A DNA stretch of 64,000 nt, from positions 439,300-503,299 of the forward strand of contig JACUTU010000001.1 of NCBI GenBank assembly GCA_014859685.1, read 5' to 3'. How positions within the stretch are numbered: position 1 is the first letter of the stretch; each line of letters opens with the position of its first letter. This DNA is from Sulfurospirillum sp. Its GTDB lineage: Bacteria; Campylobacterota; Campylobacteria; Campylobacterales; Sulfurospirillaceae. This document shows, piece by piece, positions 36,788 through 51,667 of the stretch. The notes under the pieces are model-generated. The model was not told where the DNA came from, ran no database searches, and saw nothing but the letters and a program-made list of their open reading frames with translations. Made by a program: the position numbers and the translations under genes.

Positions 36788-37366
36788 TCACCTATCTTGT
36801 ATCCAAGCATATAAAGCGTTCAAATTCATAGGTTTTGCAAACAGATATCCTTGCGCTTCTTCGCAATGATTGAGGCGTAAATAATCAGCCTGCTCTTGGG
36901 TTTCTATACCCTCTGCTAGCGTAATCATCCGCATATTGTCACTTAGATTGATTATCGAATTGGCGATTGAACACGCATCCTCTTCAAATGGAAGATCCTG
37001 CACAAATGAGATGTCAATCTTCAGCTTATCGACAGGCAATTTACGCAAATACGAAAGTGAAGAGTAGCCCGTACCAAAATCATCAATCGCTATATGAATG
37101 CCCATCGCTTTTATCTCTCCTAGCAACTTTATCCATCGTTGCGGGTCATACATAATCACAGATTCTGTGATCTCTATCTCAAGATTGTGCGGCTGTATGC
37201 CTGTTAGTTCGATAGTTTCACAAAGTTTTTTGAAAAAATCACTATGTTCTATTTGTATACCTGAGACATTGACACACATTTTTCCATCAAAACCAAATTC
37301 TTTTTTGAGTTTTACCATATCTTTGCAAGCTTGTTCAAGCACAAGCGCACCCACTGGAATAATCAT
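36788..37366 (-). pseudogene. 5'-truncated EAL-domain (c-di-GMP phosphodiesterase) gene
   Basis: The 192-residue frame is the C-terminal two thirds of an EAL domain: IPVGALVLEQACKDM, CVNVSGIQIEHSDF, ESVIMYDP, AIDDFGTGYSSLSYLRKL, KIDISFVQDL, AEGIETQEQADYL and QGYLFAKPM. The E-A-L motif itself and everything before it are missing. Homology continues a few codons upstream of the first ATG (FEDSK) and ends at a T-tract at about 37380, where phage-type DNA begins. I infer the gene was cut by the prophage; the missing half is not in this window. Confidence 0.8.
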
Positions 37367-37378
37367 CTTTGAATCTTC

Positions 37379-37404
37379 AAAAAAAGAGCTTTAGTTTAGC
37401 TCTT
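37379..37404 (-). terminator. Intrinsic terminator at the prophage edge
   Basis: On the minus strand a perfect 7-bp stem AAGAGCT/AGCTCTT with a 7-base loop is followed by a run of seven T. It contains the stop codon of the frameshifted gene at 37396-37658. The T-run abuts the first EAL homology, so it marks the boundary of the prophage or its flank. Confidence 0.75.
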
Positions 37405-37658: not shown

Positions 37659-38005
37659 AAATTCTCACTCCAAGGAAGCTCCATATATGACCACTGTTTA
37701 TACACTTTAGCTTCAGGATTTTCACAAAACTTACCGTGCGACCATCGTATTTCTATTTTTAATGGAATTTCAAACTGCTTATTTGTGATTTTATCTTTAA
37801 ACAAAAAATGTAATATAACTTCTGGTTGACCTGCATTTTTTGGACTTGCAACAATATCTAAAAAAGAATATTTTTTTATCCAATTTGTACTGTCTTCTAG
37901 CTGACTTGCGAATGGTTTATTTTTTTCAGTTCCAGCAATAATATATTTAATTCCATTTATAAAAAAGAGTTTAGAATGTCTAAGAGTTGTAAATAGATAA
38001 AAAGA
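37655..38005 (-). pseudogene. Start-less remnant of an unknown gene
   Basis: An open frame of 116 codons from a TAG at 38006-38008 to the TGA at 37655. The protein part (INGIKYIIAGTEKNKPFASQ; IVASPKNAGQPEVILHFLFK; IEIRWSHGKFCENPEAK; WSYMELPWSENL) looks coding, with a high share of tryptophan and tyrosine, but no ATG, GTG or TTG occurs before the last third. It is therefore probably the 3' part of a gene whose beginning was lost in the same event that cut the reverse transcriptase gene. Family unknown. Confidence 0.55.
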
Positions 38006-38059
38006 CTAAAAGAGCTTTATTATGGGCTTAGAGTAAGTTTTAGTGGACATTTTAAAACA

Positions 38060-38143
38060 TTAGACTTTTTTAGACTTTTTAAACGCCATAAACATATTTG
38101 CAGGCTCTATAACTTTTTCTAGCAGATTTGCGTTTCTCTTCAC
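38060..38143 (-). pseudogene. Remnant of a DGR reverse transcriptase gene (first 27 codons)
   Basis: A GTG at 38143 with AGGA 6 bases upstream opens a 27-codon frame with the residues KRNANLLEKVIEPANMFMAF then KKSKKV and a TAA. This is like the N-terminus of DGR reverse transcriptases (pattern NLxxKIxxxENLxxAFxKAxKGK), and it stands where the RT gene always stands, directly after avd and the template repeat. The remaining 300 or so codons, including the catalytic QxxxSQ and YxDD region, are absent. The identification is inferred from motif and position. Confidence 0.65.
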
Positions 38144-38279
38144 TTTTTTTCCTGTAAAATCTTGAGAGCTTCACCCGAGAGTTACCACAATCAAGATTTA
38201 AAAATATTTCGAGACAAGCCCAAGATACCGTATCCCTATAGTTCCACTTCACCCTTACAAGTCTTGAGGCTTTTATAGT

Positions 38280-38386
38280 CACGACCGCCCACATTGTTGT
38301 TCGAATTGCCACGGACATTGTTCAAATTGCGAGCACGAGAACCCGAAGCGGAAACATTGTTCCAATTCCCAAACACAATAGGGGAC
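38280..38386 (-). repeat. DGR template repeat (TR)
   Basis: A 107-bp copy of the 3' end of the tail fibre gene, offset by exactly 601 bases from the variable repeat at 38881-38987. Of 107 positions 95 agree; all 12 differences fall on adenines of the template as read on the minus strand (21 adenines in all) and none on the other 86 positions. On the minus strand the template holds runs of AAC/AAT triplets, the typical substrate of adenine mutagenesis. It lies between avd and the RT remnant. Confidence 0.95.
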
Positions 38387-38416
38387 ACACACATATCAAT
38401 ACGATACCTTATATAA

Positions 38417-38815
38417 CTACCATCTGTTTTCAGATTTTATTTTTTTGATCCATCCACCGATGAGCCGCCCAATCTCATCGCTCAAAAAGCTAAGATTTGC
38501 ATATCTTTTTTCAGCAATCGCCAAAGGATTATCCCCATCTGTCTTACCATCTTTAAAAGAAAAATACCCTAGATGATATGCCAATAACAACTTTGCTTTA
38601 AGTCTCTCATGTGTGATATCTAGCTCACTTAGAGTTGTTTTTTTATGATACTTTTTTTGCCCCTCTACCATAAGGTCAAACACTCTATACATATCATCCC
38701 GTATACTTTGGCAGAGCGCATATTTTTCACTTTTTGGAAAGTGATTGAGATAGAGATTTGTTTGTTTTGCTAAGGTTATAAACTTCCTTACAAAAAGCGT
38801 ACTTACATCATCCAT
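38417..38815 (-). CDS. avd: DGR accessory variability determinant (Avd-like four-helix protein)
   Basis: A 132-aa, positively charged, all-helical protein: SEKYALCQSIRDDMYRVFDL, THERLKAKLLLAYHLGYFSF, SDEIGRLIGGWIKKIKSENR. This matches the four-helix-bundle bAvd family, which forms a pentamer that binds the DGR reverse transcriptase and template RNA during mutagenic homing. The order fibre gene - avd - template repeat - RT is the classic one from the Bordetella phage BPP-1 element. It is 36 bases downstream of the fibre gene. Confidence 0.85.
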   Translation of the reverse strand: MDDVSTLFVRKFITLAKQTNLYLNHFPKSEKYALCQSIRDDMYRVFDLMVEGQKKYHKKTTLSELDITHERLKAKLLLAYHLGYFSFKDGKTDGDNPLAIAEKRYANLSFLSDEIGRLIGGWIKKIKSENRW

Positions 38816-38840
38816 CTAAATTCTCCAAAAAAAATTTCAA

Positions 38841-38862
38841 GTGCAGGGTTATCACCCTGCAC
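38841..38862 (-). repeat. Hairpin/cruciform downstream of the variable repeat
   Basis: A perfect 9-bp inverted repeat (GTGCAGGGT / ACCCTGCAC) with a 4-base loop, 18 bases past the end of the variable repeat. The fibre gene's TGA lies at the loop. BPP-1-type DGRs need a GC-rich hairpin with a 4-base loop just after the VR for target recognition, so this is the expected element. It could also stop transcription, but no T-run follows. Confidence 0.8.
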
Positions 38863-40273
38863 GACGAGGAACCAAGTAGGCACGACCGCCCACAACGGTG
38901 TTCGAACTGCCACGGACAGCGTTCAAAGAGCGAGCACGAGAACCCGAAGCGGAAACATGGACCCAATACCCAAACACAATAGGGGACATTTCATTTCTCT
39001 GATATCGCCAAAATCCATCATTGCCATATCTAGAAGCTCCTGCCGTACTCACGGCGGTGTCATCCTTTGGCAGACCTAGCGAGTCTATCTTGTAAGCATT
39101 TGTAGCTCTATCAGTGCTTCCATTGTAAAACTGATTTGTCCCGTTACCGAAAAGAACAGTAGTATTATTTAGCGTAAGAGGTATGCTAACCACATCATAG
39201 AGTGTCGTGTCATAGGCGTTTGCGCTAGTAAGCGTTGCTATATCAACCTCTTCTTTGAGCACCATATGCACCCCATTTATATCGGTGATATACCCACTTG
39301 CCACTTCCCACATCAAACCGTTGACATCTGCTATGCCGCTTTTTTGACCACAATGAGTAATCTTAGCAAACACACTATCACTCACACCACCGCTAAGACC
39401 ACAGGTGGCATACCCGCTTGCCGTGTAGACTACACTGCTATCATTTGCATCTCTAAGTGCGTTGTTGTTGCACCCTTTTGGTGCGTATGGAGCCGTGAAA
39501 GCCCATGCACACGCTGCAAAGTTATTGTTCCTATAGCACGCTTGATAGTGAGCATCGCCTAAGTCTGTTAGCATCGTTGCCAAAAAGATAGACATCTCTA
39601 CAAACTCATCCCCTCTACTTTTAACAGCGGCATACATCCCATCATATCTATTGAGTGGTGCTTGTCCATTAGCCGTACACTGCGAGATAGGGTTATGATC
39701 TACATGCGTTGAAGCAGGGTCAAGGTTTCTTTTGCTCACAAACACATTTCCCTCGAGTCCGCCTTTATACTTGTCCACAAACACGCCCGCAACTTCAAAG
39801 CCGTTGTTTACAAAAACTCTAGGAAGCTTGTAATCGCTTGCAAGCGTAGCACTCACATCTATTCTCTGCCCATAGTATGGAGCGTTTATATCATACGAGT
39901 ATTTTACATAGTGTTTCGGTACCCACACCATCACACTACCGCTAAGCGCATGCATATAGTTCCCGTATGTGTCACTCAGTGGATTGTTATAGTCCCCTAT
40001 CCCTATCATCCCATACTCACTAGCGATAGCATCAGGTGCTACCCCTTTACCAAAACCGAAACTCCCAGCTACGCCGATGCTATTTACGATTGGCGTGATG
40101 ATAGTTTGCAAGTGATTGACCACTTCGATTTTTTTGTTTTCTATAGTCGTTATTGCGCTATTTTTGCTTGATTCTATCTGCGTAAATCCCCCGTCAAATC
40201 TCTGTAAAAGCCCAGTTTGCTGTGTAAGCAACTCTCCTAGTTTTATGTTCAAACTCGCATCAATTGTTCCCAT
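38852..40273 (-). CDS. Phage tail fibre / receptor-binding protein, DGR target
   Basis: The 473-aa protein has a short N-terminal coiled region (LGELLTQQTGLLQRFDGGFT), a central domain and a C-terminal lectin-like fold of the formylglycine-enzyme type (GLMWEVASGYITDINGVH; GNDGFWRYQRNE; GGRAYLVPRRAG). The last 45 residues contain the variable repeat. In the template the variable residues would be mostly asparagine; here they are Y, V, H, S, A, S, T and others. It is the last structural gene of the tail block and should decide host-receptor choice. A cysteine-rich middle (QCTANG, CYRNNNFAACAW, KGCNN) is notable. Confidence 0.9.
   Translation of the reverse strand: MGTIDASLNIKLGELLTQQTGLLQRFDGGFTQIESSKNSAITTIENKKIEVVNHLQTIITPIVNSIGVAGSFGFGKGVAPDAIASEYGMIGIGDYNNPLSDTYGNYMHALSGSVMVWVPKHYVKYSYDINAPYYGQRIDVSATLASDYKLPRVFVNNGFEVAGVFVDKYKGGLEGNVFVSKRNLDPASTHVDHNPISQCTANGQAPLNRYDGMYAAVKSRGDEFVEMSIFLATMLTDLGDAHYQACYRNNNFAACAWAFTAPYAPKGCNNNALRDANDSSVVYTASGYATCGLSGGVSDSVFAKITHCGQKSGIADVNGLMWEVASGYITDINGVHMVLKEEVDIATLTSANAYDTTLYDVVSIPLTLNNTTVLFGNGTNQFYNGSTDRATNAYKIDSLGLPKDDTAVSTAGASRYGNDGFWRYQRNEMSPIVFGYWVHVSASGSRARSLNAVRGSSNTVVGGRAYLVPRRAG
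38881..38987 (-). repeat. DGR variable repeat (VR)
   Basis: The 107-bp 3' segment of the fibre gene that matches the template at 38280-38386. Mismatches are clustered in the codons for the ligand-binding loops (FGYWVHVSASG, RSLNAVRGSSNTVVGGR), with the conserved core GSRAR and flanks unchanged. The 3' end nearest the hairpin, GGGCGGTCGTG on the coding strand, is identical in both repeats and would be the initiation site for homing. Confidence 0.95.
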
Positions 40274-40275
40274 TT

Positions 40276-40713
40276 TTACATCTCCTCTTCTATTGTTTTA
40301 AACTCTTTAAGTGTTACTGCCTCATTGATTCTCATCTCAAAAGCGCTACAGATATCTCTGTGGTTGTTGATATATGCCCACATCTCATCTTTATCAACCT
40401 GCGTGTAGCCTTGCAAGTTGTTGATGTTGTTTTGTTTGTAGAGTGGATAAAGACCCTCTATATCTTTGTTTGTTTTGGTTCTTATGAAGTTTAAAAGTTT
40501 ATCTTTCATAAACACCATTTGAACGCTGGTTAAAAACTCCCCACCCTCGCACTCTACGGCTCTGTTTTCATTGGCTTCTAGCCATGTTGCTATCTTCTCA
40601 TCGGTTGCGGTGACCAAAAAGCCATCACTCCCATCCTCTAGTGTGTGAATATCACACTCCTCTTCATCTAGATTATAAAGTGAAACAGACTCACTACTTT
40701 TAAAAAATCTCAT
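40276..40713 (-). CDS. Phage hypothetical protein upstream of the tail fibre
   Basis: A 145-aa acidic soluble protein (RFFKSSESVSLYNLDEEECD; ATWLEANENRAVECEGGEFL; GYTQVDKDEMWAYINNHRDI). I do not recognise it. It ends 2 bases before the fibre gene and starts 18 bases after gpD, so it is part of the tail operon and may be a fibre chaperone or baseplate part. No domain is evident. Confidence 0.7.
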   Translation of the reverse strand: MRFFKSSESVSLYNLDEEECDIHTLEDGSDGFLVTATDEKIATWLEANENRAVECEGGEFLTSVQMVFMKDKLLNFIRTKTNKDIEGLYPLYKQNNINNLQGYTQVDKDEMWAYINNHRDICSAFEMRINEAVTLKEFKTIEEEM

Positions 40714-40731
40714 TCTTTTTTTTCCTTTTTT

Positions 40732-41649
40732 CTAATTTTCAAACTCTACAGTAGTAGTAAAACCACCGCCATCAAACCTATGAGAAACTCGCATAATCCC
40801 ATAGATACCATCATCATACGAACCACTTACATGTAAGGTTCCTCCAGCAAACATAACACGCCCCATCATCTCTAAAGAACCCGTTATAGTGCCTTTGTTT
40901 GCCCGTTCAAGCCTTGCTTTTGCTTTAAGCAGCGCTTCGTTTTCATCTTTGAAGCTTCCTTGTATCTCTAAAGTTGGATTTTCATCACCATAGCTTACCT
41001 CCTTATCGGTGTTGGATTTTGTGTCTCGCCAAGTAGCTTTCACACTGCCGTACTTCGTTTTGTTAGAGTGGGTGATATCAAGAGATATACAATCATCATA
41101 ATCCACGCCATAGCTTAGTTTTTCTTGCTTTTTGGCGCCAAAAAAGAGCGTATTGTTTTTGATAGAAAAGATTTGATTTACATCTTTTGCAAGCCTCATC
41201 AAAAAAGCCAAATCGCTCTCATCGTGCTGTGCAAAATAGCTAAAATCCGCATCAAAATCACACAGCACATCCAAAGAGTGTTCTCGTGCTATCTGCTCAC
41301 ACAGCGCTTTATAGCTCATATCTTTGAAGTCTCTTGTTTTTTTTCTCTTTAGCTCCCCACCAAAATCAACCGCCGTAGCTTTGATGCTCAAAACCTCTCT
41401 ATTTTTTCTACTTGTTGTTTGCACTTTGTAGGTTCCTAAAAACTCTAAGCCACTCTCTTCATACCCAAGCCAAAGTTTCAGCTCATCGCCATAGAGTGGT
41501 CGTGTATAGGCTCCTGCTACTTTGAGGGTGACTTCATCGCTTAACACTCCCTCTTCATCGCTTACCTCAAGGCTTATCATGTTTTTTTGCAAAACATCGG
41601 TAACATCGCTACTATTTACCTCTACTCTAAATATAGGCGTCAGCTCCAT
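40732..41649 (-). CDS. Phage tail hub protein (P2 gpD-like)
   Basis: A 305-aa protein of the late-control gpD / baseplate hub family. It begins with FRVEVNSSDVTDVLQKNMIS and LSDEVTLKVAGAYTRPLYGD, and has a middle stretch FSYFAQHDESDLAFLMRLAK that is typical of the family. The C-terminal beta domain contains GTITGSLEMMGRVMFAGGTL. It connects tail tube and spike. The stop of gpX overlaps its start by 10 bases, as in P2-like tails (X followed by D). Confidence 0.85.
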   Translation of the reverse strand: MELTPIFRVEVNSSDVTDVLQKNMISLEVSDEEGVLSDEVTLKVAGAYTRPLYGDELKLWLGYEESGLEFLGTYKVQTTSRKNREVLSIKATAVDFGGELKRKKTRDFKDMSYKALCEQIAREHSLDVLCDFDADFSYFAQHDESDLAFLMRLAKDVNQIFSIKNNTLFFGAKKQEKLSYGVDYDDCISLDITHSNKTKYGSVKATWRDTKSNTDKEVSYGDENPTLEIQGSFKDENEALLKAKARLERANKGTITGSLEMMGRVMFAGGTLHVSGSYDDGIYGIMRVSHRFDGGGFTTTVEFEN

Positions 41650-41840
41650 AAAGCTTTGGTCTCCTCTTTTGGTTTGGTTTCAAATATAGGAAGATAGACT
41701 ATATCCCCGCTATTTAAAGTGTCTTTGCCCAGTAAGTGCTGGTTTGCTTCAAGCACCGCAAAAAAATTGTCCAGACTCTCATACGCCCTAAACACTACCG
41801 CATCGATTCTATCGCCATCATGTGCCATATAACTATTCAT
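41640..41840 (-). CDS. Phage tail protein X (LysM-like)
   Basis: A 66-aa protein starting NSYMAHDGDRIDAVVFRAYE with LDNFFAVLEANQHLLGKDTL and GDIVYLPIF, which is the LysM-like fold of P2 gpX. It overlaps gpU by 8 bases and gpD by 10. Small size and position are exactly as in P2-type tails. Confidence 0.88.
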   Translation of the reverse strand: MNSYMAHDGDRIDAVVFRAYESLDNFFAVLEANQHLLGKDTLNSGDIVYLPIFETKPKEETKALWS

Positions 41841-42192
41841 AATAAACCTCTATGCTAAGTTTTAACTCCTGTTTAAGCGGGCTTCCATTTGCATCAAAAT
41901 AGCTCTTAACTATCTCACACTCGCTCACCAATACTCTATGCCCAACCCCATCGCCAAACACCATCCAAAGAGGCTTTTTGGCTTTGATTTTTGCTTCAAA
42001 ATATTTTAGATAGTCCCTTTTTTTATTATAATAAACCACTTCAAGAGTAAAGCTCTCATCGTATAGCCCTATGGCTTGATGGTGTACGCTTTTACCTAGT
42101 CTGGCATTTTTCGCAAAGGGGAGTGAGAGTTTTTTAGCGATACTCTCACTCTCTTTTATATCAAAGTAAAAATCATCAATCATACATATCAT
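41833..42192 (-). CDS. Phage tail protein U (tail terminator)
   Basis: A 119-aa protein similar to P2 gpU, which ends tail-tube growth. Typical parts are FTLEVVYYNKKRDYLKYFEA, KKPLWMVFGDGVGHRVLVSE and a final beta strand ELKLSIEVYYE. It overlaps the tape-measure gene by 4 bases. The call rests on pattern and on synteny T-U-X-D. Confidence 0.82.
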   Translation of the reverse strand: MICMIDDFYFDIKESESIAKKLSLPFAKNARLGKSVHHQAIGLYDESFTLEVVYYNKKRDYLKYFEAKIKAKKPLWMVFGDGVGHRVLVSECEIVKSYFDANGSPLKQELKLSIEVYYE

Positions 42193-44192
42193 GCAACATC
42201 TCCCAGTGTTCTGTTTTTCTCATTTGCTCGTATCTCTTTGAGTGCTATCTCTACTGCTTTTTGGATATCTATCTTCATAGCTTGTATCTCCTCTTTCGAA
42301 GTTACTTTTGGGTTATTGATATTGACAACTACACTTAATGTTGAATCTTTAGTCTTTGATTTTGAAGTATTTTCAAACTTTGGAGTCACAACCGCTTGAT
42401 TTACCTTTGGCGTTACAACCGCAGGAGTTGCCATCGCAAGTGTTCCTGCCGTTGCTATAGCAACCGTGCTATTTTTTAATACCGTTGCAACTTTGGAGGG
42501 TTTTTTCTCCTCCTTTTTTTTCTCTTTATCATCCCCGCCAAATCCAAAAAAACCACCGATGGATTTAGATATAGAGCTTATCTTTTCTATCCCGCTACTT
42601 ACAAAACTAAATTTTGCCCCAACCCAATCAAAAAACGATCCCCAAGCCTCTTTTATAGGATCCCAAAATGTATACAACAACAATCCCGCACCAACAACGG
42701 CACCTACGACCAAGCCTATGGGGTTTGCTAAGATTGCAGTATTTAGAAGCAAAGCCCCAACTCTTGCAACTAAAAAAGCATTTTTGAGAGCCAAAAATCC
42801 AGTGACTGCATACCCTGCTACAAACCCAACGCCACTTATAGCGATACTTGTAAGTGCTAATCCCGCAGCAAGCCCAAGAACTACTTTGATGCCATCTCCT
42901 AAAACAGGGATATTGATAAGCGAAGCAAAGCCACTACTTACGGTTCGTATCACACTTACTACGCCATTGAGGGCAGGAAGCAAAACCGAGCCAAAATTGA
43001 TAGCGATTTCACTTACGCCATTGCCTAATAGTTTCAGATTGTTAGCGGTTGTTGCACTTCTTGCTTCAAACTCTCTTTGCATTGAGTTTTGATATTTTGT
43101 GGCATCGCTTGTGAGGCTAAGAGCTTTTTCATAGTTTTCAAGCCCACCCACAAGTAATGCTATATCGTCGCTATATTCAGCCCCAAACAAATCAGACAAT
43201 ACGCCCATTTGTTCAGTTTTGTCCACCTTGCTTAGAGTTTGCAAGAAGTTATTTAATGCCCCTTGAGCATCTTCATCTACTGCTTTTTTCAGCTCTGTGG
43301 CATCAAGCCCAATGCCTTGAAGAGCATCTTGAAATTTGGCTCCTTGTTTGTCTGCTGTTTTTAGTTTGAGTAAAAGTGCATTGATGGATGTTGCCGCAAC
43401 TTCTGGTGGTTTGCCCAGCGCTATAAAAGCACTGCTTAATGCTCCAGCTTCAATGGATGTTAGCCCAAAAACTTTCGCCACACCGCCAATGCGACCAAGA
43501 GTGCTTACAACATCGGCAGCCTTTGCCGCACTGTTATCGCTTAGGTGGTTGATACTATCGCCTAGATTTTTAACCTCGCTCATCGATAAACCATACACAT
43601 TCATGAGCTTTGCTATACTATCTCCAGCATCTCCTGCGCTCATGTCAAACGCCGTACTCATCTTAGCGACGGTTGTTGTAAATTCCATTAGGTTATCTTT
43701 GGCAATTCCTAGTTGCCCACCACTTGCCGTAATCTGCGCCAACTCATTTGCACTTAAAGGAATTGTTTTAGAGAGCGATAAAAGAGAAGATTCAAACCCC
43801 TTAAACTCTACATCATTAGCAAAATCCACTACTTTTTTGACATCTGCCATCGAGCTTTCAAAATCTATAGCTACTTTTATAGGAGCCGCTATAGTCGCCC
43901 CAATAGCGAACTTTTCCATGATAGAGCTTTTAAATTTTTCTCTCCCCTCTATAACCGTATCTATTTTGATTTTGTTTTTATTGATTTTAGATATGGCACT
44001 GCTAAGGCTTGCTATCTGTTTTTCAGCCCTTTTGTACTCTTTAGTGTCTGCTTTGAGGTTTGCTTTTTTTGTGTTGAGTGCAGAGATAGAGAGGTTAAGT
44101 TTATTGAGGGCATAGTTGCTATTAGCCAATGCTTTAGCACCGCTAAAAACACTCCCTATGACGATACTAACTCCCATGGTTTTTAAACTCAT
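42189..44192 (-). CDS. Phage tail tape-measure protein
   Basis: A 667-aa protein that sets tail length and is extended through the tube. It has an N-terminal coiled region, the TP901-type core with LSANELAQITASGGQLGIAK, TAFDMSAGDAGDSIAKLMNV and AAKAADVVSTLGRIGGVAKV, hydrophobic helices at about 405-515, and a lysine-rich tail (GDDKEKKKEEKKPSK). The length is in the range of P2 gpT (about 815) but shorter, implying a shorter tail. The start overlaps nothing; a 180-base gap to the E' frame precedes it. Confidence 0.92.
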   Translation of the reverse strand: MSLKTMGVSIVIGSVFSGAKALANSNYALNKLNLSISALNTKKANLKADTKEYKRAEKQIASLSSAISKINKNKIKIDTVIEGREKFKSSIMEKFAIGATIAAPIKVAIDFESSMADVKKVVDFANDVEFKGFESSLLSLSKTIPLSANELAQITASGGQLGIAKDNLMEFTTTVAKMSTAFDMSAGDAGDSIAKLMNVYGLSMSEVKNLGDSINHLSDNSAAKAADVVSTLGRIGGVAKVFGLTSIEAGALSSAFIALGKPPEVAATSINALLLKLKTADKQGAKFQDALQGIGLDATELKKAVDEDAQGALNNFLQTLSKVDKTEQMGVLSDLFGAEYSDDIALLVGGLENYEKALSLTSDATKYQNSMQREFEARSATTANNLKLLGNGVSEIAINFGSVLLPALNGVVSVIRTVSSGFASLINIPVLGDGIKVVLGLAAGLALTSIAISGVGFVAGYAVTGFLALKNAFLVARVGALLLNTAILANPIGLVVGAVVGAGLLLYTFWDPIKEAWGSFFDWVGAKFSFVSSGIEKISSISKSIGGFFGFGGDDKEKKKEEKKPSKVATVLKNSTVAIATAGTLAMATPAVVTPKVNQAVVTPKFENTSKSKTKDSTLSVVVNINNPKVTSKEEIQAMKIDIQKAVEIALKEIRANEKNRTLGDVA

Positions 44193-44228
44193 ATCCTAAG
44201 CTCCTTTTTCTTTTGCTATAATTCAAGT

Positions 44229-44432
44229 ATGAAAAATGAAATCATCATACTTGTACTTTTTTTTAATGCTACGCTTATCTTTTTTTCCGTACCAAATGAC
44301 GGGTTTGGATATGCACTTATAGCTTCGTTTTGTATCTCTTTTATTCTCTTTCCCATCACTGCGCTAGAGTATCTACTCTTTGAGGTATTCATTGGCTTTT
44401 TTGACAAAAAAAACAAAATCACTCACTCTTAA
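44229..44432 (+). CDS. Possible small membrane protein on the opposite strand
   Basis: A 67-aa frame with two hydrophobic helices (IIILVLFFNATLIFFSV and YALIASFCISFILFPITAL) and a basic end (FFDKKNKITHS). It is antisense to the tail operon, in the gap before the tape-measure gene. TGCTATAAT, an extended -10, lies 7 bases before the ATG, which would give a nearly leaderless message. The last 60 bases overlap the E' frame on the other strand. It may be a moron gene or chance. Confidence 0.35.
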   Translation: MKNEIIILVLFFNATLIFFSVPNDGFGYALIASFCISFILFPITALEYLLFEVFIGFFDKKNKITHS

Positions 44433-44707
44433 ACGCAAGCAATCATGCAAACCAAAATGTAACACATATCCCAAATGAGCGATACCATCTCGGGCATCGC
44501 TCCAGCTTATGACAAAAAAGTCTGTAGTTTCTCTTGTACTTTTTTGTACTCTTTAAATGGAAGAGTTTTTATCTCTTCAACCGTGTAGCCTGTGAGATTG
44601 CTCACAAGCGTTACTTCTTTTAGCGTGTCACCTGTTACGCTATCCACCGCCATGATATCGCCCAAAGAGGGTTCTCTCATTTTTTCTATAAGTTCATTTG
44701 CTTTCAT
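44373..44707 (-). CDS. Tail assembly chaperone gpE-E' made by -1 frameshift
   Basis: The gpE frame (44507-44707) carries T TTT TTG at 44519-44513, a canonical X-XXY-YYZ slip site, two codons before its stop. A -1 shift continues for 46 codons (ISWSDARDGIAHLGYVLHFG; LRLRVSDFVFFVKKANEYLK) to a TAG at 44373, giving 111 residues. P2 and most long-tailed phages make such an extended chaperone at the same place, just before the tape measure. The slip site and the coding look of the extension are seen; the use of the site is inferred. Confidence 0.8.
44507..44707 (-). CDS. Tail assembly protein gpE
   Basis: The 66-aa product of the unshifted frame: MKANELIEKMREPSLGDIMA, then TGYTVEEIKTLPFKEYKKVQ. 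Tail assembly chaperones of this kind bind the tape-measure protein and recruit tube subunits. It lies 3 bases after the tail tube gene, as E follows FII in P2. Most product should be this short form; a minority would be the extended form. Confidence 0.85.
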   Translation of the reverse strand: MKANELIEKMREPSLGDIMAVDSVTGDTLKEVTLVSNLTGYTVEEIKTLPFKEYKKVQEKLQTFLS

Positions 44708-44710
44708 TTT

Positions 44711-45202
44711 TTATCCTACTAAAAAGTCTCTCTGGGCTGCCCAGATATCGTTACCGTTAATCTCACAAATCATATTTTCAACATCTATGAGATTTTCCAC
44801 ATAGCCATCAGTCTCTTTTTTGAAAAAGTCAACTGTTAGTTCAATGGTTTTCATGTTTTCTTTGCCAACCTCGATATCGCCGTGCGTCATCTTGACGATG
44901 CTTCCTTTGAGGGTTACGGTTACTTGCTTGTTATTGGCTGTATATTTCACATCAAAAGAGGCTCTCTCGAGCGTTCTTTTTGCCAGTGCTTCATAGTAAA
45001 CCTTGTTTTCTTCTATAAGCTCTAGCGTCGCTTTCATCTGTTTTAAGATGGTAGAGTATGAGGTGTTTTCAGCCACCCCGGACATATGCGTAAACTCCGC
45101 AAACTCAATTTCAGGCAACTTTGCTTTAGCACTATGTGCGATAAACCCAAGCCCCTGTACATACACGCTAGCACTGTTGATTATTTCTGCTTTTTTATTC
45201 AT
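44711..45202 (-). CDS. Phage major tail tube protein (FII)
   Basis: A 163-aa protein of the P2 FII family that forms the inner tube of a contractile tail. It begins with INSASVYVQGLGFIAHSAKA, contains PEIEFAEFTHMSGVAENTSY, and a late beta region VTVTLKGSIVKMTHGDIEVG. It follows the sheath gene after 15 bases. Length is typical. Confidence 0.9.
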   Translation of the reverse strand: MNKKAEIINSASVYVQGLGFIAHSAKAKLPEIEFAEFTHMSGVAENTSYSTILKQMKATLELIEENKVYYEALAKRTLERASFDVKYTANNKQVTVTLKGSIVKMTHGDIEVGKENMKTIELTVDFFKKETDGYVENLIDVENMICEINGNDIWAAQRDFLVG

Positions 45203-45217
45203 CTTTTTCCCTTTTTA

Positions 45218-46426
45218 CTATGAAATCATTTTGATAAGAACATCGCCATATCTATCCACATACGAAAAGTTCACCTCAAGTCGTTTAACGATCGGCATAT
45301 TTTGCATCTCTGCTACAAGATAGAATTTTCCAGCCGTGATATTTGCTTTAGTGTTTTTTTCAGGATCCCAATACACATTAAAACCAAGTAACACCCTAGA
45401 GCCTTTGAGAGCTAAAAGCATCTGTTCTACACTATCTTTGACCGATTTTAAGATATCCGCTCTTCTATCAATCGCCCAAAACAGTCCATCAAGTGCCGCT
45501 TCGCTGATTCTATCAAACACTCTTACCCTAGTGTGGTCTTGCCAGATAGGGTCTATATCCGTAGTCTCTCCACCCCACATTCTAAAACCGTTGTATCTGA
45601 TAACAGTACCAATCCCAGCGGTTCTAAGTCTATCCGCCTCACAATCTTGTCCTGCGTTAAACTCAACCGTTCTGCTTGTCCCACTGATACCGTTGATAAC
45701 TCTGTTTGAGTGAGAATCTGCAAAACCATACTCCCACTGCCCATCAGTCCAAGCGATGAGTCCTGCTCTTCTTGCGCTCACAGGTTGCATCACTTCCTTA
45801 TCTTGTAGCGTATCCCACACTTTTACATACGGGTCACAAAGAAGCACTCTGGAAGTTCCAAAAGATGAAACCATCAAAGCGGCCGCACTCTCATCTGCTG
45901 CATTCATATCTACTATAGCCATTGCTAAGAGTCTTTGTGCCACGCTTGTCATCTCAGTGCTTACATCCAAATCATGAGAAAATCTAGGCGCCACTATGAG
46001 GTTTGGTTTGTACCCGACTAATCCCGCTACACCTTTTAAACTGTTGATAGCCGCAATGATTTTTGATTTGAGTGTCAAATCATCATAAAAATTCTCTGCT
46101 ACTTTACCGCTATGGATAGATTCTAACTCCACGCATACCAAGATAAGCGGGCTGTTTACATTTTGATCGGCGATACCATCTACCGCCTCTCTCATCGTCC
46201 CCTCAAAATCTGCAAAAAACTCATTTGCCGTGTCGGCACTTCCAAAAAACAGAGGCTCATTTGCTTTGATTTTGTTGAAAATTGCCACATGCTCTTCACT
46301 CATCCCTGTAGTATCGGCTGGAAGCAGCACCGTGCCCACACACCCGATAGGTGTAGAGCTGTTGATTCGTATCGGTCGTGCAGCGTTTACGCTTGTAACC
46401 GTATTTACTCCGTATTGACTAGCCAT
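45218..46426 (-). CDS. Phage tail sheath protein (FI)
   Basis: The 402-aa contractile sheath subunit. Features are the N-terminal arm (GVNTVTSVNAARPIRINSST), a middle region NLIVAPRFSHDLDVSTEMTS, and the conserved C-terminal core with YNGFRMWGGETTDIDPIWQD, RRADILKSVKDSVEQMLLAL and VLLGFNVYWDPEKNTKANIT. Length matches P2 FI (396). It indicates a myovirus-type tail. The start overlaps the upstream fibre-like gene by 8 bases. Confidence 0.94.
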   Translation of the reverse strand: MASQYGVNTVTSVNAARPIRINSSTPIGCVGTVLLPADTTGMSEEHVAIFNKIKANEPLFFGSADTANEFFADFEGTMREAVDGIADQNVNSPLILVCVELESIHSGKVAENFYDDLTLKSKIIAAINSLKGVAGLVGYKPNLIVAPRFSHDLDVSTEMTSVAQRLLAMAIVDMNAADESAAALMVSSFGTSRVLLCDPYVKVWDTLQDKEVMQPVSARRAGLIAWTDGQWEYGFADSHSNRVINGISGTSRTVEFNAGQDCEADRLRTAGIGTVIRYNGFRMWGGETTDIDPIWQDHTRVRVFDRISEAALDGLFWAIDRRADILKSVKDSVEQMLLALKGSRVLLGFNVYWDPEKNTKANITAGKFYLVAEMQNMPIVKRLEVNFSYVDRYGDVLIKMIS

Positions 46427-46976
46427 TTGTTATTACTCCTCTTTCTATAAGTATATTTGTAAGTTCTGTAATCGCCTGTGCATTTGCCATGATGCTAAGA
46501 TTTTGAAAATCTATAGCATATTCAAGCTCACTGGTCGTTACATAATCATGGATCTTAAAGACCACCTCTCCAGCCTCTCCAAGTACTGCTACTTTGAAAC
46601 TGAAACTTCCTCCAACCCCTGCAACTTTTGCTACCTTAGGCGTTTTTGCAACACTCACTACCTTTTTGGTGTCTCCATCGAGATAAATTAGTGCGATGCC
46701 GTAGATATACTTGCCGTAATCCGTATCGTAAGGGAGTGCCAAGTGAAATGTTAAAACTCCATTTTCATCATACACCGCACTTTCGATATCAAGTTCCGCA
46801 AATATATAAGGCGTAAGCTGTGCGTACGAAGCATTAGTATCTGCTACAAGTGCGTCGATGGTGCTGTTTGTGAATGTGCTTGCGCCTATAAGAGCAAACC
46901 GACTCACGCCGTTTTTTAAATCCGTATTGAGGATATTGATGCCCTCAACCGTTGGCTGTGCTGTTATAGCCGCCAT
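46419..46976 (-). CDS. Phage tail fibre N-terminal-like protein
   Basis: A 185-aa protein in the place of P2 gene H. The segment LTFHLALPYDTDYGKYIYGI with ALIYLDGDTKKVVSVAKTPK resembles the baseplate-binding N-terminal domain of phage tail fibres (DUF3751 type). It lacks the long shaft and receptor domain, so it may be a short adaptor for the variable fibre at 38852-40273. The call is by resemblance and position. Confidence 0.65.
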   Translation of the reverse strand: MAAITAQPTVEGINILNTDLKNGVSRFALIGASTFTNSTIDALVADTNASYAQLTPYIFAELDIESAVYDENGVLTFHLALPYDTDYGKYIYGIALIYLDGDTKKVVSVAKTPKVAKVAGVGGSFSFKVAVLGEAGEVVFKIHDYVTTSELEYAIDFQNLSIMANAQAITELTNILIERGVITNG

Positions 46977-47023
46977 GTTAAACCTCCTTTTTGGTCTATC
47001 GTTGTTGCTATGAGTTCATCGAG

Positions 47024-47605
47024 TTAACTTTTGGTGTCAAAACAGACTCTATAATTCAACCCATAATTCAAGTGTGTTTCATCTCTCATATCATGCTCTA
47101 TCATCGTATCTGCATATACATCTAGCCCAAATACGCTAGCGCTGTGAATTTTAAAAACCGTCTCTTGATTTGCAAAGTTCAAGATGATGTTTTGTAAGTG
47201 GCTTCTTACATTTTTGTATCTGTTTACCAGTGATTTAATCTTCTCAATCTTGTCAAAACTCACATCGTTTTGAAGTTGCATACTCAAATCAAACTCAAAG
47301 TTGCCCACTCTATCATCTACAGTCACATCGCTAAAAAAGATACTTAGCACTTTTTTGAGAACGAACACGGTTCCTGCATACTTTCTTAGCTCATAAAAAA
47401 GATTGAGTATCTCTCTAGCTTCACTCTCACTTAATCCCACGATGTCAATATCATAGACTTTAGACAACACACTCAAGTACTTAGTATCAGTACTTAGTGG
47501 ATGGGCAGTGAGATTTAAAGCGAAAAACTCTTCAAACCGTGAAGAGACTATCTCATCAAGTTTGTGCAGCTCTACTGATTCGTTTTGTGGTAATATAGAA
47601 CTCAT
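47024..47605 (-). CDS. Phage baseplate/tail protein I
   Basis: A 193-aa protein of the P2 gpI family (tail protein I). Typical is the opening ILPQNESVELHKLDEIVSSR, then LSTDTKYLSVLSKVYDIDIV and EILNLFYELRKYAGTVFVLK. It is a wedge component of the baseplate. The start overlaps gpJ by 4 bases. Confidence 0.88.
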   Translation of the reverse strand: MSSILPQNESVELHKLDEIVSSRFEEFFALNLTAHPLSTDTKYLSVLSKVYDIDIVGLSESEAREILNLFYELRKYAGTVFVLKKVLSIFFSDVTVDDRVGNFEFDLSMQLQNDVSFDKIEKIKSLVNRYKNVRSHLQNIILNFANQETVFKIHSASVFGLDVYADTMIEHDMRDETHLNYGLNYRVCFDTKS

Positions 47606-48285
47606 GCTAACACCTCATAAGAAAATGATAGATTCAAATCTAACACTTGCGACGGCTCTATCTCTGTAGTGATAAAATCAGTTTGCACTCTATACACTCC
47701 CTCTTTAAAAGCGGTCGCTATTACTCTTGATGTAGTTAAGTTTTCCCCTATCTTAAAGACAATACTATCAAATGAAGCTCTTATTTTTTGCTCTAGTATA
47801 GAAGTATCAACCCCTTGTAAGACAGTTACATGTAGAGCTATATCTACAGTTATTACGCTAGCTTTTTGCACCGTGACTATGTCGCTAAGCGGACGCACTT
47901 CATCGAGGTCAAGATGGTTTTGAATCAATGCGGTTATATCGTTTGCGTGATGGTAGATAACTAGCACTTGCCCAGGTATAGGCGAGGTGATTTTTATATC
48001 CAAAATTCCCTCATCTACACTGTTTATAGCTCTTCTATAAGCCATCTCACTTCCTGCGGTGTTGTCGGTGTCGTCTGTGTTTATCATAGCAAAGGCATCA
48101 CGAAGCGTTTGGTTGAGTTTAGAGCGTAATTGTAACTCTCTAAATATCCACGCCTCAACTATCAACGAGAAACTATCACTTTCAATAAATGTTAAATCCT
48201 CGTTGAACTGCTCTTTAACATGCGTTACAATCTCATTTTTTAAAGTTTGATAGTCAAGCTCTTCTATTAGATTTTCTACTTCCAC
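47602..48285 (-). CDS. Phage baseplate assembly protein J
   Basis: A 227-aa baseplate J-like wedge protein: DYQTLKNEIVTHVKEQFNED, NTAGSEMAYRRAINSVDEGI, VTSPIPGQ-type strand DIKITSPIPGQVLVIYHHAN, and VRPLSDIVTVQKASVITVDI. Length is somewhat less than P2 gpJ (302). It overlaps gpW by 10 bases and gpI by 4. Confidence 0.9.
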   Translation of the reverse strand: MEVENLIEELDYQTLKNEIVTHVKEQFNEDLTFIESDSFSLIVEAWIFRELQLRSKLNQTLRDAFAMINTDDTDNTAGSEMAYRRAINSVDEGILDIKITSPIPGQVLVIYHHANDITALIQNHLDLDEVRPLSDIVTVQKASVITVDIALHVTVLQGVDTSILEQKIRASFDSIVFKIGENLTTSRVIATAFKEGVYRVQTDFITTEIEPSQVLDLNLSFSYEVLA

Positions 48286-48572
48286 AATATCTCCAATTTC
48301 ACTATCTCATTTTCATCAACTACTAGATACTCTAGCTCAATGCTTACCACTTCGCCCATCTGCTTTGCTTGTACTTTTTGCAGCCTAACTCGTCTCTCCC
48401 ACATCTCTACAGCTTCATACACATAGCGGGTAAAGAGCATTTGCCACTTTTTATCGGGCCGCTTATCTACAAGCTCATACAATCGGCTGCCAAACGTAGG
48501 CTCCAATACCCTTGAACCTAAAGGGGTTGTAAGTATTCGCTTGATGGATGTTTCAATATCGCATACATACAT
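48276..48572 (-). CDS. Phage baseplate protein W (gp25-like)
   Basis: A 98-aa protein of the gp25/gpW baseplate family, with a lysozyme-like fold that initiates the sheath. The conserved part is SIKRILTTPLGSRVLEPTFG then SRLYELVDKRPDKKW, and WERRVRLQKVQAKQMG. Its start and the gpV stop share one base. Confidence 0.9.
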   Translation of the reverse strand: MYVCDIETSIKRILTTPLGSRVLEPTFGSRLYELVDKRPDKKWQMLFTRYVYEAVEMWERRVRLQKVQAKQMGEVVSIELEYLVVDENEIVKLEILWK

Positions 48573-49099
48573 TATCTAGCACTCGCATCAGGGTGTGAGT
48601 GGCTTGTGAGGTCGCCTTTAGCGTCGCTGATAGTACCGCTCACGATAAGATTCCCATTGATTGACACATCGCCGTTGTGATTGGTGTTTGCCGTGATAGA
48701 TAGGTTGTCGCTTAAGATTGTTGCACTTTTACAGATTATGGTTATCTTGTCGCTCGCTTCAATCTTAAACTCTTTTGCTGCGCTATCATACGAGAAACGA
48801 GTACCGTCTTCATACTCAGTCACTTCACATGTAGCACTTGCACCTGTAGGCTCTTTGCAACTTGTGTTAAAAACTCCACGGATGATAAAACCGCCGTTCG
48901 CTTCTCCATGTGGGCATATAACCATCACTTGCTCATCTACTCTAAGCGGGTTGATGCTTCTTTTAAAACTGTTTGCAAAATGTAACACGGGGAGCATATC
49001 GCTAGTGCGGCCCATAATATTGACCTTTGCCAAAGCTCTTGCTGATGCATCAACCTCTACTATAGTCCCTATTTTTGCGATATTTTCCCATGCTTGCAT
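48572..49099 (-). CDS. Phage baseplate spike protein V
   Basis: A 175-aa central spike protein of the P2 gpV/Mu gp45 type. It starts with an OB-fold (AKIGTIVEVDASARALAKVN, LPVLHFANSFKRSINPLRVD, EQVMVICPHGEANGGFIIRG) and ends in a beta-helix with an SHSHPDA-like tip (DLTSHSHPDASAR), where histidines usually bind iron. It is the membrane-piercing tip. The start overlaps the upstream stop (TAATG). Confidence 0.92.
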   Translation of the reverse strand: MQAWENIAKIGTIVEVDASARALAKVNIMGRTSDMLPVLHFANSFKRSINPLRVDEQVMVICPHGEANGGFIIRGVFNTSCKEPTGASATCEVTEYEDGTRFSYDSAAKEFKIEASDKITIICKSATILSDNLSITANTNHNGDVSINGNLIVSGTISDAKGDLTSHSHPDASAR

Positions 49100-49272
49100 T
49101 ATTTTGCCTTAGTTGGTTTAGTTGTTTTCGTTTCAGTCTCAGGCTCTTGAACAGGCTCAACAAAACCTGCATCAATATACTTCTTTGCCACCTTGTCTGC
49201 TAACTCAATCTCTTGACCCATCTTTACAAATTTGCCTTCAATCGTTGCTATTTTTAAACTTTTTACTTTCAT
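49099..49272 (-). CDS. Small phage head-region protein (Mu gp38-like)
   Basis: A 57-aa protein MKVKSLKIATIEGKFVKMGQ with a C-terminal tail rich in threonine, lysine and proline. Small proteins of this kind stand in the same place in Mu-like phages (gp38 region), between head completion genes and the tail. It starts 6 bases after gp37-like and its stop overlaps the gpV start. Function unknown. Confidence 0.75.
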   Translation of the reverse strand: MKVKSLKIATIEGKFVKMGQEIELADKVAKKYIDAGFVEPVQEPETETKTTKPTKAK

Positions 49273-49278
49273 GATTTT

Positions 49279-49620
49279 TTAATCCTTTATATTTATTTGT
49301 ATAGTTAGCTCACACGCTACTAAGTACAGCGAACTATTTTCAAAGTTCACGCCACGACATCTTTTAAACTCTATGTCAAACGGACAATTTAAAGCTGTGA
49401 GTCTTATCTCATCCACCTTTGCCATCGCTCCGTTTTCGCCTATGTAGCTATTGGCTGCGACCACTACTGTGAAGCTTAGGGTATCTTGCACCGCATTGTT
49501 TGCTACAGACCCTTCAAAAAAAAGATAGACCCCGCTTTGGTTGATATCTTTACCATGAGCTAAAACGATAGCTTCTGTGTAAGTGCTCTCAACCGCACGA
49601 AATGCGTCTACATATCCCAT
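49279..49620 (-). CDS. Phage head-tail joining protein (Mu gp37/DUF1834-like)
   Basis: A 113-aa protein with a pattern of beta strands (DTLSFTVVVAANSYIGENGA, SSLYLVACELTIQINIKD). Mu gp37 (DUF1834) has the same size and position behind gp36. The similarity is by pattern and synteny, not by strong motifs. It overlaps the gp36-like gene by 13 bases. Confidence 0.65.
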   Translation of the reverse strand: MGYVDAFRAVESTYTEAIVLAHGKDINQSGVYLFFEGSVANNAVQDTLSFTVVVAANSYIGENGAMAKVDEIRLTALNCPFDIEFKRCRGVNFENSSLYLVACELTIQINIKD

Positions 49621-49931
49621 TGTGATTCTCTTTTTCCATACTCCACCGCATAATCAACACTCCCATCTACTTCATTTACAGATGGGGTGTTTTGCGCGGT
49701 TTTGATGATGTTTAAAAAACACTTTTGCTCATACTCGCTTAGCTCTATTTTGAGATTTTCTTTGAGCCGTAGCAGTGCTAGATCTAAAAGCAAAGTCTCT
49801 TTGATAGGCTTTGAGTCTGTAAGCTCCACCGCTTCGGCTAAAGAGAGTATCACTACATCCTCATCTATCTCTAGCGGATTGAGTAGGACTCTTTGTGCTT
49901 TTGCCTCTAGCTTAAGCTCCAACGGTGTCAT
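49608..49931 (-). CDS. Phage head completion protein (Mu gp36/DUF1320-like)
   Basis: A 107-aa, mostly helical protein (KLEAKAQRVLLNPLEIDEDV; LLDLALLRLKENLKIELSEY). Its size and its place directly after the major head gene match Mu gp36 (DUF1320), which adapts the connector. The N-terminal half is acidic. It lies 2 bases after the capsid gene. Confidence 0.65.
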   Translation of the reverse strand: MTPLELKLEAKAQRVLLNPLEIDEDVVILSLAEAVELTDSKPIKETLLLDLALLRLKENLKIELSEYEQKCFLNIIKTAQNTPSVNEVDGSVDYAVEYGKRESQWDM

Positions 49932-49933
49932 CT

Positions 49934-50794
49934 CTAAAGAGCCGTTCCGCTAAATCTATACGCTAGTTGCCATAGTCCATACCCAGCGTTCATAAATGAC
50001 TTCACACCAAAAAGAGCATGATCTTTCATAAACTTATCATCATTGGAAGCTTCAAAGATTCCATCTTTTGCCACTTGCGCGATGAAAGGCTTCAAAGGTT
50101 TTGAGATGTCTAACAAAAACCACTCACTACCCGTAATCTCAGGCAGTACCATATACTCCACCATTTTATAAGTCTCATTTGACTCTCCACCTGCTTTGAA
50201 CTCTTTTTCTAAAGTTTGGATTGCAGCTGATCTATTTGTAGGGCCGCACACGAGCATAGTCGGTTTTATTCTAAGAGTTTTTCCGTTTGCATTTTTGATG
50301 GACTCCATAAAATTCATCCCCGCCAATACATTTGCAGTATTAAGCTCCCCCGCACCCATGTTTGCATAAGTGTCAGTTCCTGTGATATGATCGGCAGCAA
50401 AAAACGCTTTACCGTCATAACATAGATTTGTATGCCCATTGATAAGAACATCTGCTACAAGTTCACTAGGAAATAGTTTCGCATTGAGTGCCATCTGCTC
50501 TATCGCAGGTTTATATAGTCCCACTTTGTCATACTCGATGTGAATGTTTGGAACAGTCACAGAAGCCTCGTAGAGTTTGTTCTCCAGCGTATATCCAAAG
50601 TCACTAAGTACTTTTACATCTCTGTCCCCTATCCACTCTTTCATGTTTGGGAAGTTTCCTAACCATGTGTACTTTTCACTCAAATCATTTGACTTGATTT
50701 CTGTGGCAAGGCGTTTGGCTTCGCTTGTCGTATCGTTGTATGTTTTTTGAAAGATGGATTTAAACCCGATGCTTGTCTCTTCAAAATGTGCCAT
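49934..50794 (-). CDS. Mu-like major head protein (gpT)
   Basis: A 286-aa capsid subunit of the Mu gpT family. Typical are the opening GFKSIFQKTYNDTTSEAKRL, LGNFPNMKEWIGDRDVKVLS, LYEASVTVPNIHIEYDKVGL, and the late stretch LKPFIAQVAKDGIFEASNDD. HK97-type fold is known for the family. It follows the protease/scaffold gene after 2 bases. Confidence 0.92.
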   Translation of the reverse strand: MAHFEETSIGFKSIFQKTYNDTTSEAKRLATEIKSNDLSEKYTWLGNFPNMKEWIGDRDVKVLSDFGYTLENKLYEASVTVPNIHIEYDKVGLYKPAIEQMALNAKLFPSELVADVLINGHTNLCYDGKAFFAADHITGTDTYANMGAGELNTANVLAGMNFMESIKNANGKTLRIKPTMLVCGPTNRSAAIQTLEKEFKAGGESNETYKMVEYMVLPEITGSEWFLLDISKPLKPFIAQVAKDGIFEASNDDKFMKDHALFGVKSFMNAGYGLWQLAYRFSGTAL

Positions 50795-50796
50795 GA

Positions 50797-51534
50797 TTAC
50801 GCCTCCTTACTTGCTAAGTACTCTTCAGGTGTAATCCCTAAAAGGTCAGCTACTTTTTTATCGTTTGCGCTAAGAATTTTTGTTTGGTTGTTTTGCTCTA
50901 AGTCTGTTTTACCACCGAGTAATCCAATCTTTTTGTTCATCTCTTTGATAGCAGCTCCAAGCACACTCAACTCATTCATGATAGCTTTTGAGTTCTCCTC
51001 TTTATCCTCAGGCTCTTTAGCCTCAGGCTCTTTTTTTAAACTCTCCACTTCTGTTTTTAGAGATGCAATCTCATTTTTTAATGCTTCTAACTCTTGCAAT
51101 TTTTTTTCCTTTTTTGTTTTTTCTTTTTCGTTTAGCTCACGGTTGAGCAAATTGGGTCTATTTACAAGACCAACACTATCAAGACCTACCACACGAGAGT
51201 TTTCACCCATAGAGTACACAGGAGATAGATACCTGTAGGACTTAGCTTCAAGAAGCTCTTTGCCTTTTTGGTTAAGTTCAAGAGAGCCATACATCCCATC
51301 TTCTCTTACCTCGAACGAGGATTTGTCAAACCATCCCACCGCTTCTGCGAAAGAGTGGTTGATATCCAGAGGGATATGTATATCGTTTGTTGCGATATCT
51401 CTTAAGAGTTGCTCCCCGTCTATCACAAATCCACGACCGTCATACCCTATCACATTGCCTATAGGACTTACTTTGACCTTCTCCCCTTCCTTAAAGTTGA
51501 GTTCTATTTTTTTTTGCAGTTTTAAACCATCCAA
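50797..51534 (-). CDS. Mu-like prohead protease/scaffold (gpI)
   Basis: A 245-aa protein of the Mu gpI family. The N-terminal protease domain has DINHSFAEAVGWFDKSSFEV and YRYLSPVYSMGENSRVVGLD, then GLVNRPNL. The C-terminal half is a coiled coil (LQELEALKNEIASLKTEVES; KEPEAKEPEDKEENSKA), the scaffold. It is first gene in the minus-strand head-tail operon, with GGAGGT before the ATG. Confidence 0.88.
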   Translation of the reverse strand: MDGLKLQKKIELNFKEGEKVKVSPIGNVIGYDGRGFVIDGEQLLRDIATNDIHIPLDINHSFAEAVGWFDKSSFEVREDGMYGSLELNQKGKELLEAKSYRYLSPVYSMGENSRVVGLDSVGLVNRPNLLNRELNEKEKTKKEKKLQELEALKNEIASLKTEVESLKKEPEAKEPEDKEENSKAIMNELSVLGAAIKEMNKKIGLLGGKTDLEQNNQTKILSANDKKVADLLGITPEEYLASKEA

Positions 51535-51667
51535 CTATTACCTCCAATATCAAGATGTGCCATTATGACACCGCTAATTGCTCGAAATATCTATATGTCC
51601 GTATATGGACGCTAAAGCAAAAAAACAGTGTTAAAGTGCGGCATTATTAAATTTTAAGGGAAGTTTT
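51535..51667. promoter_or_regulatory. Divergent control region between the two phage late operons
   Basis: 133 bases separate the minus-strand head-tail operon from the plus-strand packaging-lysis operon. An inverted repeat GTCC-GTATAT-GGAC is centred at 51597-51610, about 60 bases from each start. Strong ribosome binding sites lie on both sides (GGAGGT, AAGGGAAG). I see no consensus -35/-10 pair. A late activator may bind here. Confidence 0.45.

What the first reader, a model, noticed from the sequence alone, without database searches (positions are those of the whole stretch)
38280..38987. Diversity-generating retroelement in a Mu/P2-like prophage
Two 107-bp repeats, 601 bases apart, differ at 12 positions. 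All 12 lie at adenines of the template (21 adenines, 86 other positions, none of which changed). The variable copy is the 3' end of a tail fibre gene with a lectin-type fold; avd, the template and an RT start follow in classic order, and a 9-bp hairpin with a 4-base loop lies just behind the variable repeat. Seen directly: repeats, mismatch pattern, hairpin. Known: BPP-1-type DGR logic. Inferred: the fibre is or was diversified for receptor switching.
Basis: partly seen in the sequence, partly recalled or inferred. Interest (0 to 1): 0.92.

Follow-up and report, generated by a model that had tools for sequence, protein, structure and literature searches.

The report
Phage diversity cassette lacking its enzyme
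A prophage in this bacterium carries a gene-diversifying cassette whose template, target, helper gene and target hairpin are present but whose reverse transcriptase is cut off after its first few codons and was found nowhere else in the assembly, so its tail-fibre-like protein is likely frozen in the last version the cassette wrote.

Summary

The reverse transcriptase is missing. Only codons 1 to about 12-25 remain; they run into a block that two related phage contigs also carry, likely the phage's right end. RVT_1 and a DGR-RT profile find nothing in the assembly. Of 164 avd loci from public contigs, 148 have a full RT, 8 a partial or split one, 1 none, and 7 contigs end too early.

So this is an RT-deleted DGR, not a working one. 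In a second phage contig (L096) the RT breaks off within about a dozen codons of the same point, before the same block. Most likely the fibre was diversified until the RT was lost and is now frozen. RT in trans is not excluded: 22 of 22 TR differences between window and L096 are tracked by each VR.

The parts
38852..40273 (-). target gene, 473 aa, tail-fibre-like protein with C-type-lectin (TaqVP/Mtd/FGE) fold and N-terminal helix 6-59
38877..38988 (-). variable repeat (VR), 3' end of the target gene; 9 codons differ from the template, 8 of them Asn codons in the TR
38841..38862 (.). hairpin behind the VR: 9-bp stem, GATA loop (fits the 5'-GRNA rule for phage DGRs)
   Evidence: rule from PMC3240598, passages read
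38417..38815 (-). avd, 132 aa
   Evidence: PF22296 bAvd 62.4 bits, cut-off 40; phrog_3206 Avd of DGR; 99 homologues
38276..38387 (-). template repeat (TR)
38144..38275 (-). spacer (Sp) between TR and RT start; keeps 31 of 35 columns near-invariant in 15 RT+ relatives
   Evidence: consensus fold 22 pairs, 6 with changes on both sides, in 8 sequences
38069..38143 (-). RT remnant: 25 codons at most (VKRNANLLEKVI sure; codons 13-25 overlap the phage-end block)
   Evidence: tblastn of a relative's RT, residues 1-25, E 0.003 against the window alone; boundary
37960..38099 (.). conserved block following the RT remnant, likely the phage's right end; shared with L096 and with DGR-less phage contig L235
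   Evidence: local alignment scores 137 (L235) and 97 (L096), 0 of 1000 shuffles as good in each
40276..57403 (.). Mu/P2-like head-tail module (gpD, tape measure, tube, sheath, tail P2_I, baseplate, capsid, protease, terminase, Mu portal, lysozyme, holin, MuF); not every gene in it was scanned
36788..37390 (-). C-terminal 200 aa of a host EAL gene (orthologue 1108 aa in G001); N-terminal part not in the window

Best explanation
This is a diversity-generating retroelement of a Mu/P2-like prophage in which TR, VR, avd and the target hairpin are present but the reverse transcriptase breaks off within its first 12-25 codons and was found nowhere else in the assembly, so the VR was likely written by past adenine-mutagenic homing and is now predicted to be frozen. 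Shown: the A-only mismatches, the gene order, the truncation, the absence of RT matches in the assembly, the lectin-type fold of the model. Inferred: a deletion between the RT 5' end and the phage's right end removed the enzyme. A similar truncation in a second phage suggests that this end of the cassette may be lost repeatedly. The fibre would keep the receptor-binding surface of its last homing event and change only by ordinary mutation, unless an RT enters the cell.
For: RT homology stops at codons 12-25 and passes into a block shared with L096 and L235. 0 RVT_1 matches in the own genome, 100% complete by estimate, while 3 of 14 control genomes ring. 0 matches to a DGR-RT profile in the own genome while 9 of 17 genomes or records searched ring. 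In eight near relatives (L006, L007, L016-L018, L097-L099) the RT sits 258-270 nt behind avd and is 331 aa long. 0 of 88 non-A columns differ between TR and VR, as expected if the last homing was recent. Only 4 of 396 other genomes drawn from the phylum carry an avd match, so donors of this family are rare there. In L096 the first 12 RT codons are still 12 of 12 identical to an intact RT, P0224, so that loss looks recent.
Against: Two diverged phages (avd dN 0.20, dS 2.6) lack the RT from nearly the same point, which one old loss would explain more simply than two. Since they split, TR and VR have kept in step in each (22 of 22 columns), and avd is under strong constraint; that would fit homing that went on after the RT was lost. 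Over the first 63 aligned nt of the RT frame window and L096 agree at 36, fewer than either with L016 (39 and 38), which would fit older decay, though this stretch includes the part that overlaps the end block.
Confidence: 0.7

Rival explanations
1. The cassette is still used: an RT supplied in trans by another phage or prophage rewrites the VR now and then, and this RT-less form is a stable lineage.
For: Truncation in the same zone in window and L096; 22 of 22 non-A TR differences between them tracked by each VR; avd dN/dS about 0.08, dS near saturation; spacer keeps 31 of 35 (window) and 28 of 35 (L096) near-invariant columns, and 6 of 22 consensus pairs show changes on both sides.
Against: No RT match in the own genome. 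L096's first 12 RT codons equal those of intact P0224, so its loss looks recent and need not be shared. The window-L096 grouping in the avd tree is weak (81/77). The six nearest RT+ phages keep 35 of 35 or 35 of 36 of such spacer columns, more than the window does. Single-sequence folds of the spacer lie within 1.4 sd of their shuffles in 5 of 5.
Confidence: 0.2
2. Fully active BPP-1-type DGR, with its RT overlooked or missing only from the assembly.
For: The other parts are present. The assembly has 23 contigs.
Against: TR, RT remnant and the sequence behind it lie inside one contig of about 0.5 Mb. A similar break occurs in a separately assembled phage contig. No RT in either search.
Confidence: 0.04
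3. Assembly artefact: the RT was skipped between similar sequences.
For: TR and VR are long repeats, a known hazard; the junction was not checked with reads.
Against: The junction is not at the repeat; it reads into a block that L235 carries about 45 nt behind gpD and that L096 carries behind its own RT remnant.
Confidence: 0.05
4. The two repeats are an ordinary duplication, unrelated to a DGR.
For: None found.
Against: 13 of 13 mismatches at adenines, p about 4e-11; avd between them; closest fold is a DGR variable protein.
Confidence: 0.01

Closest known systems
BPP-1 DGR of Bordetella phage (mtd-VR-hairpin-avd-TR-brt)
   Same: Order target-VR-hairpin-avd-TR, A-only changes, GRNA hairpin 14 nt behind the VR, lectin-fold target (order recalled; hairpin rule from PMC3240598, passages)
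   Different: RT reduced to its first 12-25 codons and abutting a likely phage end
   Same: avd 67-69% identical; target 60-61% in the four compared, L016-L018 and L099; TR-RT spacing alike in the eight
   Different: RT full length; in L016-L018 and L099 the cassette lies between a tail gene and the sheath gene, and in L007, L097, L098 the sheath gene also follows the RT; L225 and L226 not checked for this
IMG/VR contig L096
   Same: Same gene order as the window, TR/VR with 13 A changes, RT broken at codon 12-13 before the same block
   Different: 2 non-A TR/VR differences; remnant out of frame; contig ends 490 nt behind avd
Target-only DGR leftovers in Treponema denticola (PMC4891356, passages read)
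   Same: VR with A-biased changes in strains without RT
   Different: There TR was not found either; here TR, avd, spacer and hairpin are kept
TaqVP, Thermus aquaticus DGR variable protein (5vf4)
   Different: 19% identity; different host and context
Campylobacter/Helicobacter Mu-like prophages (CAM-P21, BK070047)
   Same: Sheath 40% and 56% identical; similar structural genes in BK070047
   Different: No DGR annotated in BK070047; window lacks the early half that BK070047 has

Membership tests
Complete diversity-generating retroelement (BPP-1 type) | DGR-type reverse transcriptase gene beside the TR | tested here: not met
   Codons 1 to about 12-25 only; 0 matches in own genome
Complete diversity-generating retroelement (BPP-1 type) | TR/VR pair differing at template adenines | tested here: met
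   13 of 13 mismatches at A
Complete diversity-generating retroelement (BPP-1 type) | Avd accessory protein | tested here: met
   PF22296 and phrog_3206
Complete diversity-generating retroelement (BPP-1 type) | Hairpin with 7-10 bp stem and GRNA loop 4-34 bp behind the VR | tested here: met
   9 bp, GATA, 14 nt (rule)
Complete diversity-generating retroelement (BPP-1 type) | IMH / IMH* difference at the repeat ends | tested here: inconclusive
   G+C-rich 3' end seen; no test made of which bases act as IMH
Complete diversity-generating retroelement (BPP-1 type) | C-type-lectin or Ig fold target | tested here: met
Complete diversity-generating retroelement (BPP-1 type) | Ongoing adenine mutagenesis of the VR | not testable with these tools
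   No reads or isolates at hand
RT-deleted DGR (DGR remnant) | DGR parts present, RT truncated | tested here: met
Complete Mu-like prophage | MuA-type transposase in the element | tested here: not met
   One model only, Mu-transpos_C: its single match in the genome lies on another contig, beside genes that I read, without a family search, as Tn7-like

The most novel reading that the evidence does not exclude
These phages carry non-autonomous, 'satellite' DGRs: they have shed the reverse transcriptase but keep the minimal substrate set (target, hairpin, avd, TR and spacer up to the first RT codons) and have their tail fibres rewritten by RTs of co-resident phages, a class that RT-anchored surveys cannot see.
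Probability: 0.2. Interest if true: 0.85.

Novelty: new variant of a known kind. Interest (0 to 1): 0.5.

Why it matters
A large DGR survey starts from RT genes of 250-550 aa (PMC8144416, passages read), so a cassette that has lost only the RT would be missed by it. Finding two diverged phages that keep avd, TR, VR and hairpin but lose the RT near the same codon raises a testable question: does diversification end by RT deletion that fixes a good fibre, or do such cassettes live on enzymes from other phages?

Tried and rejected
RT elsewhere in the assembly: none by RVT_1 or by the DGR-RT profile A2. TR or VR copies elsewhere: none. MuA half of the phage elsewhere: the one Mu-transpos_C match sits among genes that look Tn7-like. 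EAL N-terminal part: not in the window or the C15 stretch; the whole genome was not searched for it. Source of 37391-37959: no Pfam in the three reading pieces scanned, nothing convincing in the loci at hand (best E 0.04), single copy; probably host DNA, not shown. Decay of the RT remnant as a clock: a first score over 25 codons put the remnant second lowest among 93 RT N-termini, but L235 later showed that codons 13-25 overlap the phage-end block, so I do not use that score. RT-to-end micro-homology as the cause of the deletion: the end blocks of L235 and L096 show no significant match in any of the 6 RT genes tried (36-189 of 200 shuffles as good); for the window's own block the best match lay at about codons 15-25 in 5 of 6, with 0, 15, 28, 44 and 154 of 200 shuffles as good; inconclusive, as no RT+ phage with this end was at hand. 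RT status of closer relatives from contig lengths in the protein searches: among the 120 listed of 5504 RT hits none had the contig lengths given for P0001, P0004 or P0005; too indirect to count. The tape-measure scan of viral contigs gave no confirmed relative, although L193, L211, L212 and L219 carry one. Rfam on 37900-38900: one sub-threshold miRNA match. Spacer fold: 5 of 5 single-sequence folds within 1.4 sd of shuffles. Paper searches for RT-less DGRs or RT in trans showed me no report of one; only the held open-access library was searched, and except for four papers of which I saw passages (PMC3240598, PMC4891356, PMC8144416, PMC12875486) the papers were seen as listings.

Full report
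Observation. On the minus strand the order is target gene (40273-38852), VR (38988-38877), hairpin (38862-38841), avd (38815-38417), TR (38387-38276), spacer, RT remnant. Nine codons differ, eight of them Asn codons in the template. A search of the 2.1-Mb, 23-contig assembly with the TR finds only these two places.

The missing enzyme. In eight near RT-bearing relatives the RT starts 258-270 nt behind avd and has 331 residues. In the window a relative's RT aligns for residues 1-25 only (38143-38069, E 0.003 for the window alone), and the frame stops two codons later. RVT_1 finds nothing in the whole genome (3 of 14 control genomes ring), and neither does a profile of six DGR RTs (9 of 17 genomes or records ring). 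Of 164 avd loci from public contigs (two of these scans kept only the best 80 of 97 and of 426; six contigs fetched twice were dropped, but other duplicates, such as L028 and L167, were not), 148 hold a full RT, 8 a partial or split one, some perhaps cut by contig ends, 1 none, and in 7, L096 among them, the contig ends within 1350 nt.

What lies behind the remnant. Contig L096 has the window's gene order and an RT that also breaks off, after codon 12-13. Contig L235, same phage kind but without a DGR behind gpD, carries about 45 nt behind its gpD gene the block that follows the RT remnant in window and L096; the three pairwise alignments beat 1000 of 1000 shuffles each. As the block lies at the end of L235 and near the end of L096, I read it as the phage's right end (inferred). 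Where RT ends and the block begins is unsure in the window (codons 12 to 25), because codons 15-25 resemble both. L193, a third phage with this order, has lost something else: avd from about codon 10 on, TR and most of the RT, keeping about 95 RT codons at the 3' side. In L016-L018 and L099 the cassette sits between a tail gene and the sheath gene, with RT intact.

Frozen or fed from outside. For a recent loss: 0 of 88 non-A columns differ between TR and VR in the window (2 of 89 in L096), and in L096 the first 12 RT codons equal those of the intact RT P0224. For an older loss or continued use: window and L096 differ at 22 non-A TR columns, and in 22 of 22 each VR follows its own TR, though avd shows dN 0.20 and dS 2.6; if the RT loss is older than that split, homing went on without an own RT. 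Over 63 aligned nt of the RT frame window and L096 agree at 36, against 39 and 38 with L016, which would fit decay. The avd tree groups window, P0001-P0003 and L096/P0005 only weakly (81/77). Of columns near-invariant in 15 RT+ phages, the spacer keeps 31 of 35 in the window and 28 of 35 in L096, and the RT start (to about codon 21) 16 and 14 of 21; left out in turn, the six nearest RT+ phages keep 35 of 35 or 35 of 36 and 21 of 21, the nine others 25 of 37 to 35 of 36 and 19 of 21 to 21 of 21, with 20 of 26 at the lowest ratio. The consensus fold of the spacer has 6 of 22 pairs changed on both sides, but single folds are within chance. Donors are rare: 5 of 397 phylum genomes, the own one included, carry an avd match; with P0006 as query 8 of 398 genomes of the order do, three of them at E 1.6e-5 to 3e-4. 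I therefore put 0.7 on frozen and 0.2 on RT in trans.

Relatives look active or were until lately: two proteins, P0107 and P0108, differ at 12 of 473 residues, 10 of them between 432 and 460, in the VR-coded end. This is protein level only; whether the changes lie at template adenines could not be seen.

Literature. The main survey seen selects RTs of 250-550 aa (PMC8144416, passages). T. denticola strains with targets but neither RT nor TR are reported as leftovers (PMC4891356, passages). [quoted passage not shown] coli states that the spacer recruits bRT-Avd and that inactivating bRT, Avd or TR abolishes most activity (PMC12875486, passages). My searches showed no report of a DGR that lost only its RT.

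Noticed in passing
36788-37390 and L183 1741-5064: Host EAL gene cut to its C-terminal 200 aa; the same-genus orthologue has 1108 aa. The N-terminal part was not found in the window or the stretch of C15.
   Followed up: partly
L193 8550-9110: Another phage of this order lost avd (after about 10 codons), TR and most of the RT; an apparent FGGY-kinase reading (recalled name, no search) follows within a few hundred bp, as if the phage end lay there.
   Followed up: partly
L191/L192 (G000 C15 about 157-162 kb): Tn7-like element (TnsA/B/C- and TniQ-like readings, named by recall) near an mnmG-like gene.
   Followed up: no
L050 (Lautropia MAG) and L027, L032, L037, L055, L086, L087, L091, L147: avd loci with no RT (L050) or a partial or split RT nearby; not examined one by one, and contig ends may explain some.
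   Followed up: no
P0220, and G443/G436/G246 RT frames of 423-425 aa: In intact relatives the RT reading frame stays open back through the TR, so TR may be read in frame with RT.
   Followed up: no
57543-57914: Weak, sub-threshold match to Tad3, a Thoeris inhibitor (16.8 bits, cut-off 27).
   Followed up: no
57390-58580: A short stretch with GGATTGAAAAATGATAGAAC occurs twice between the prophage module and the ABC transporter genes.
   Followed up: no
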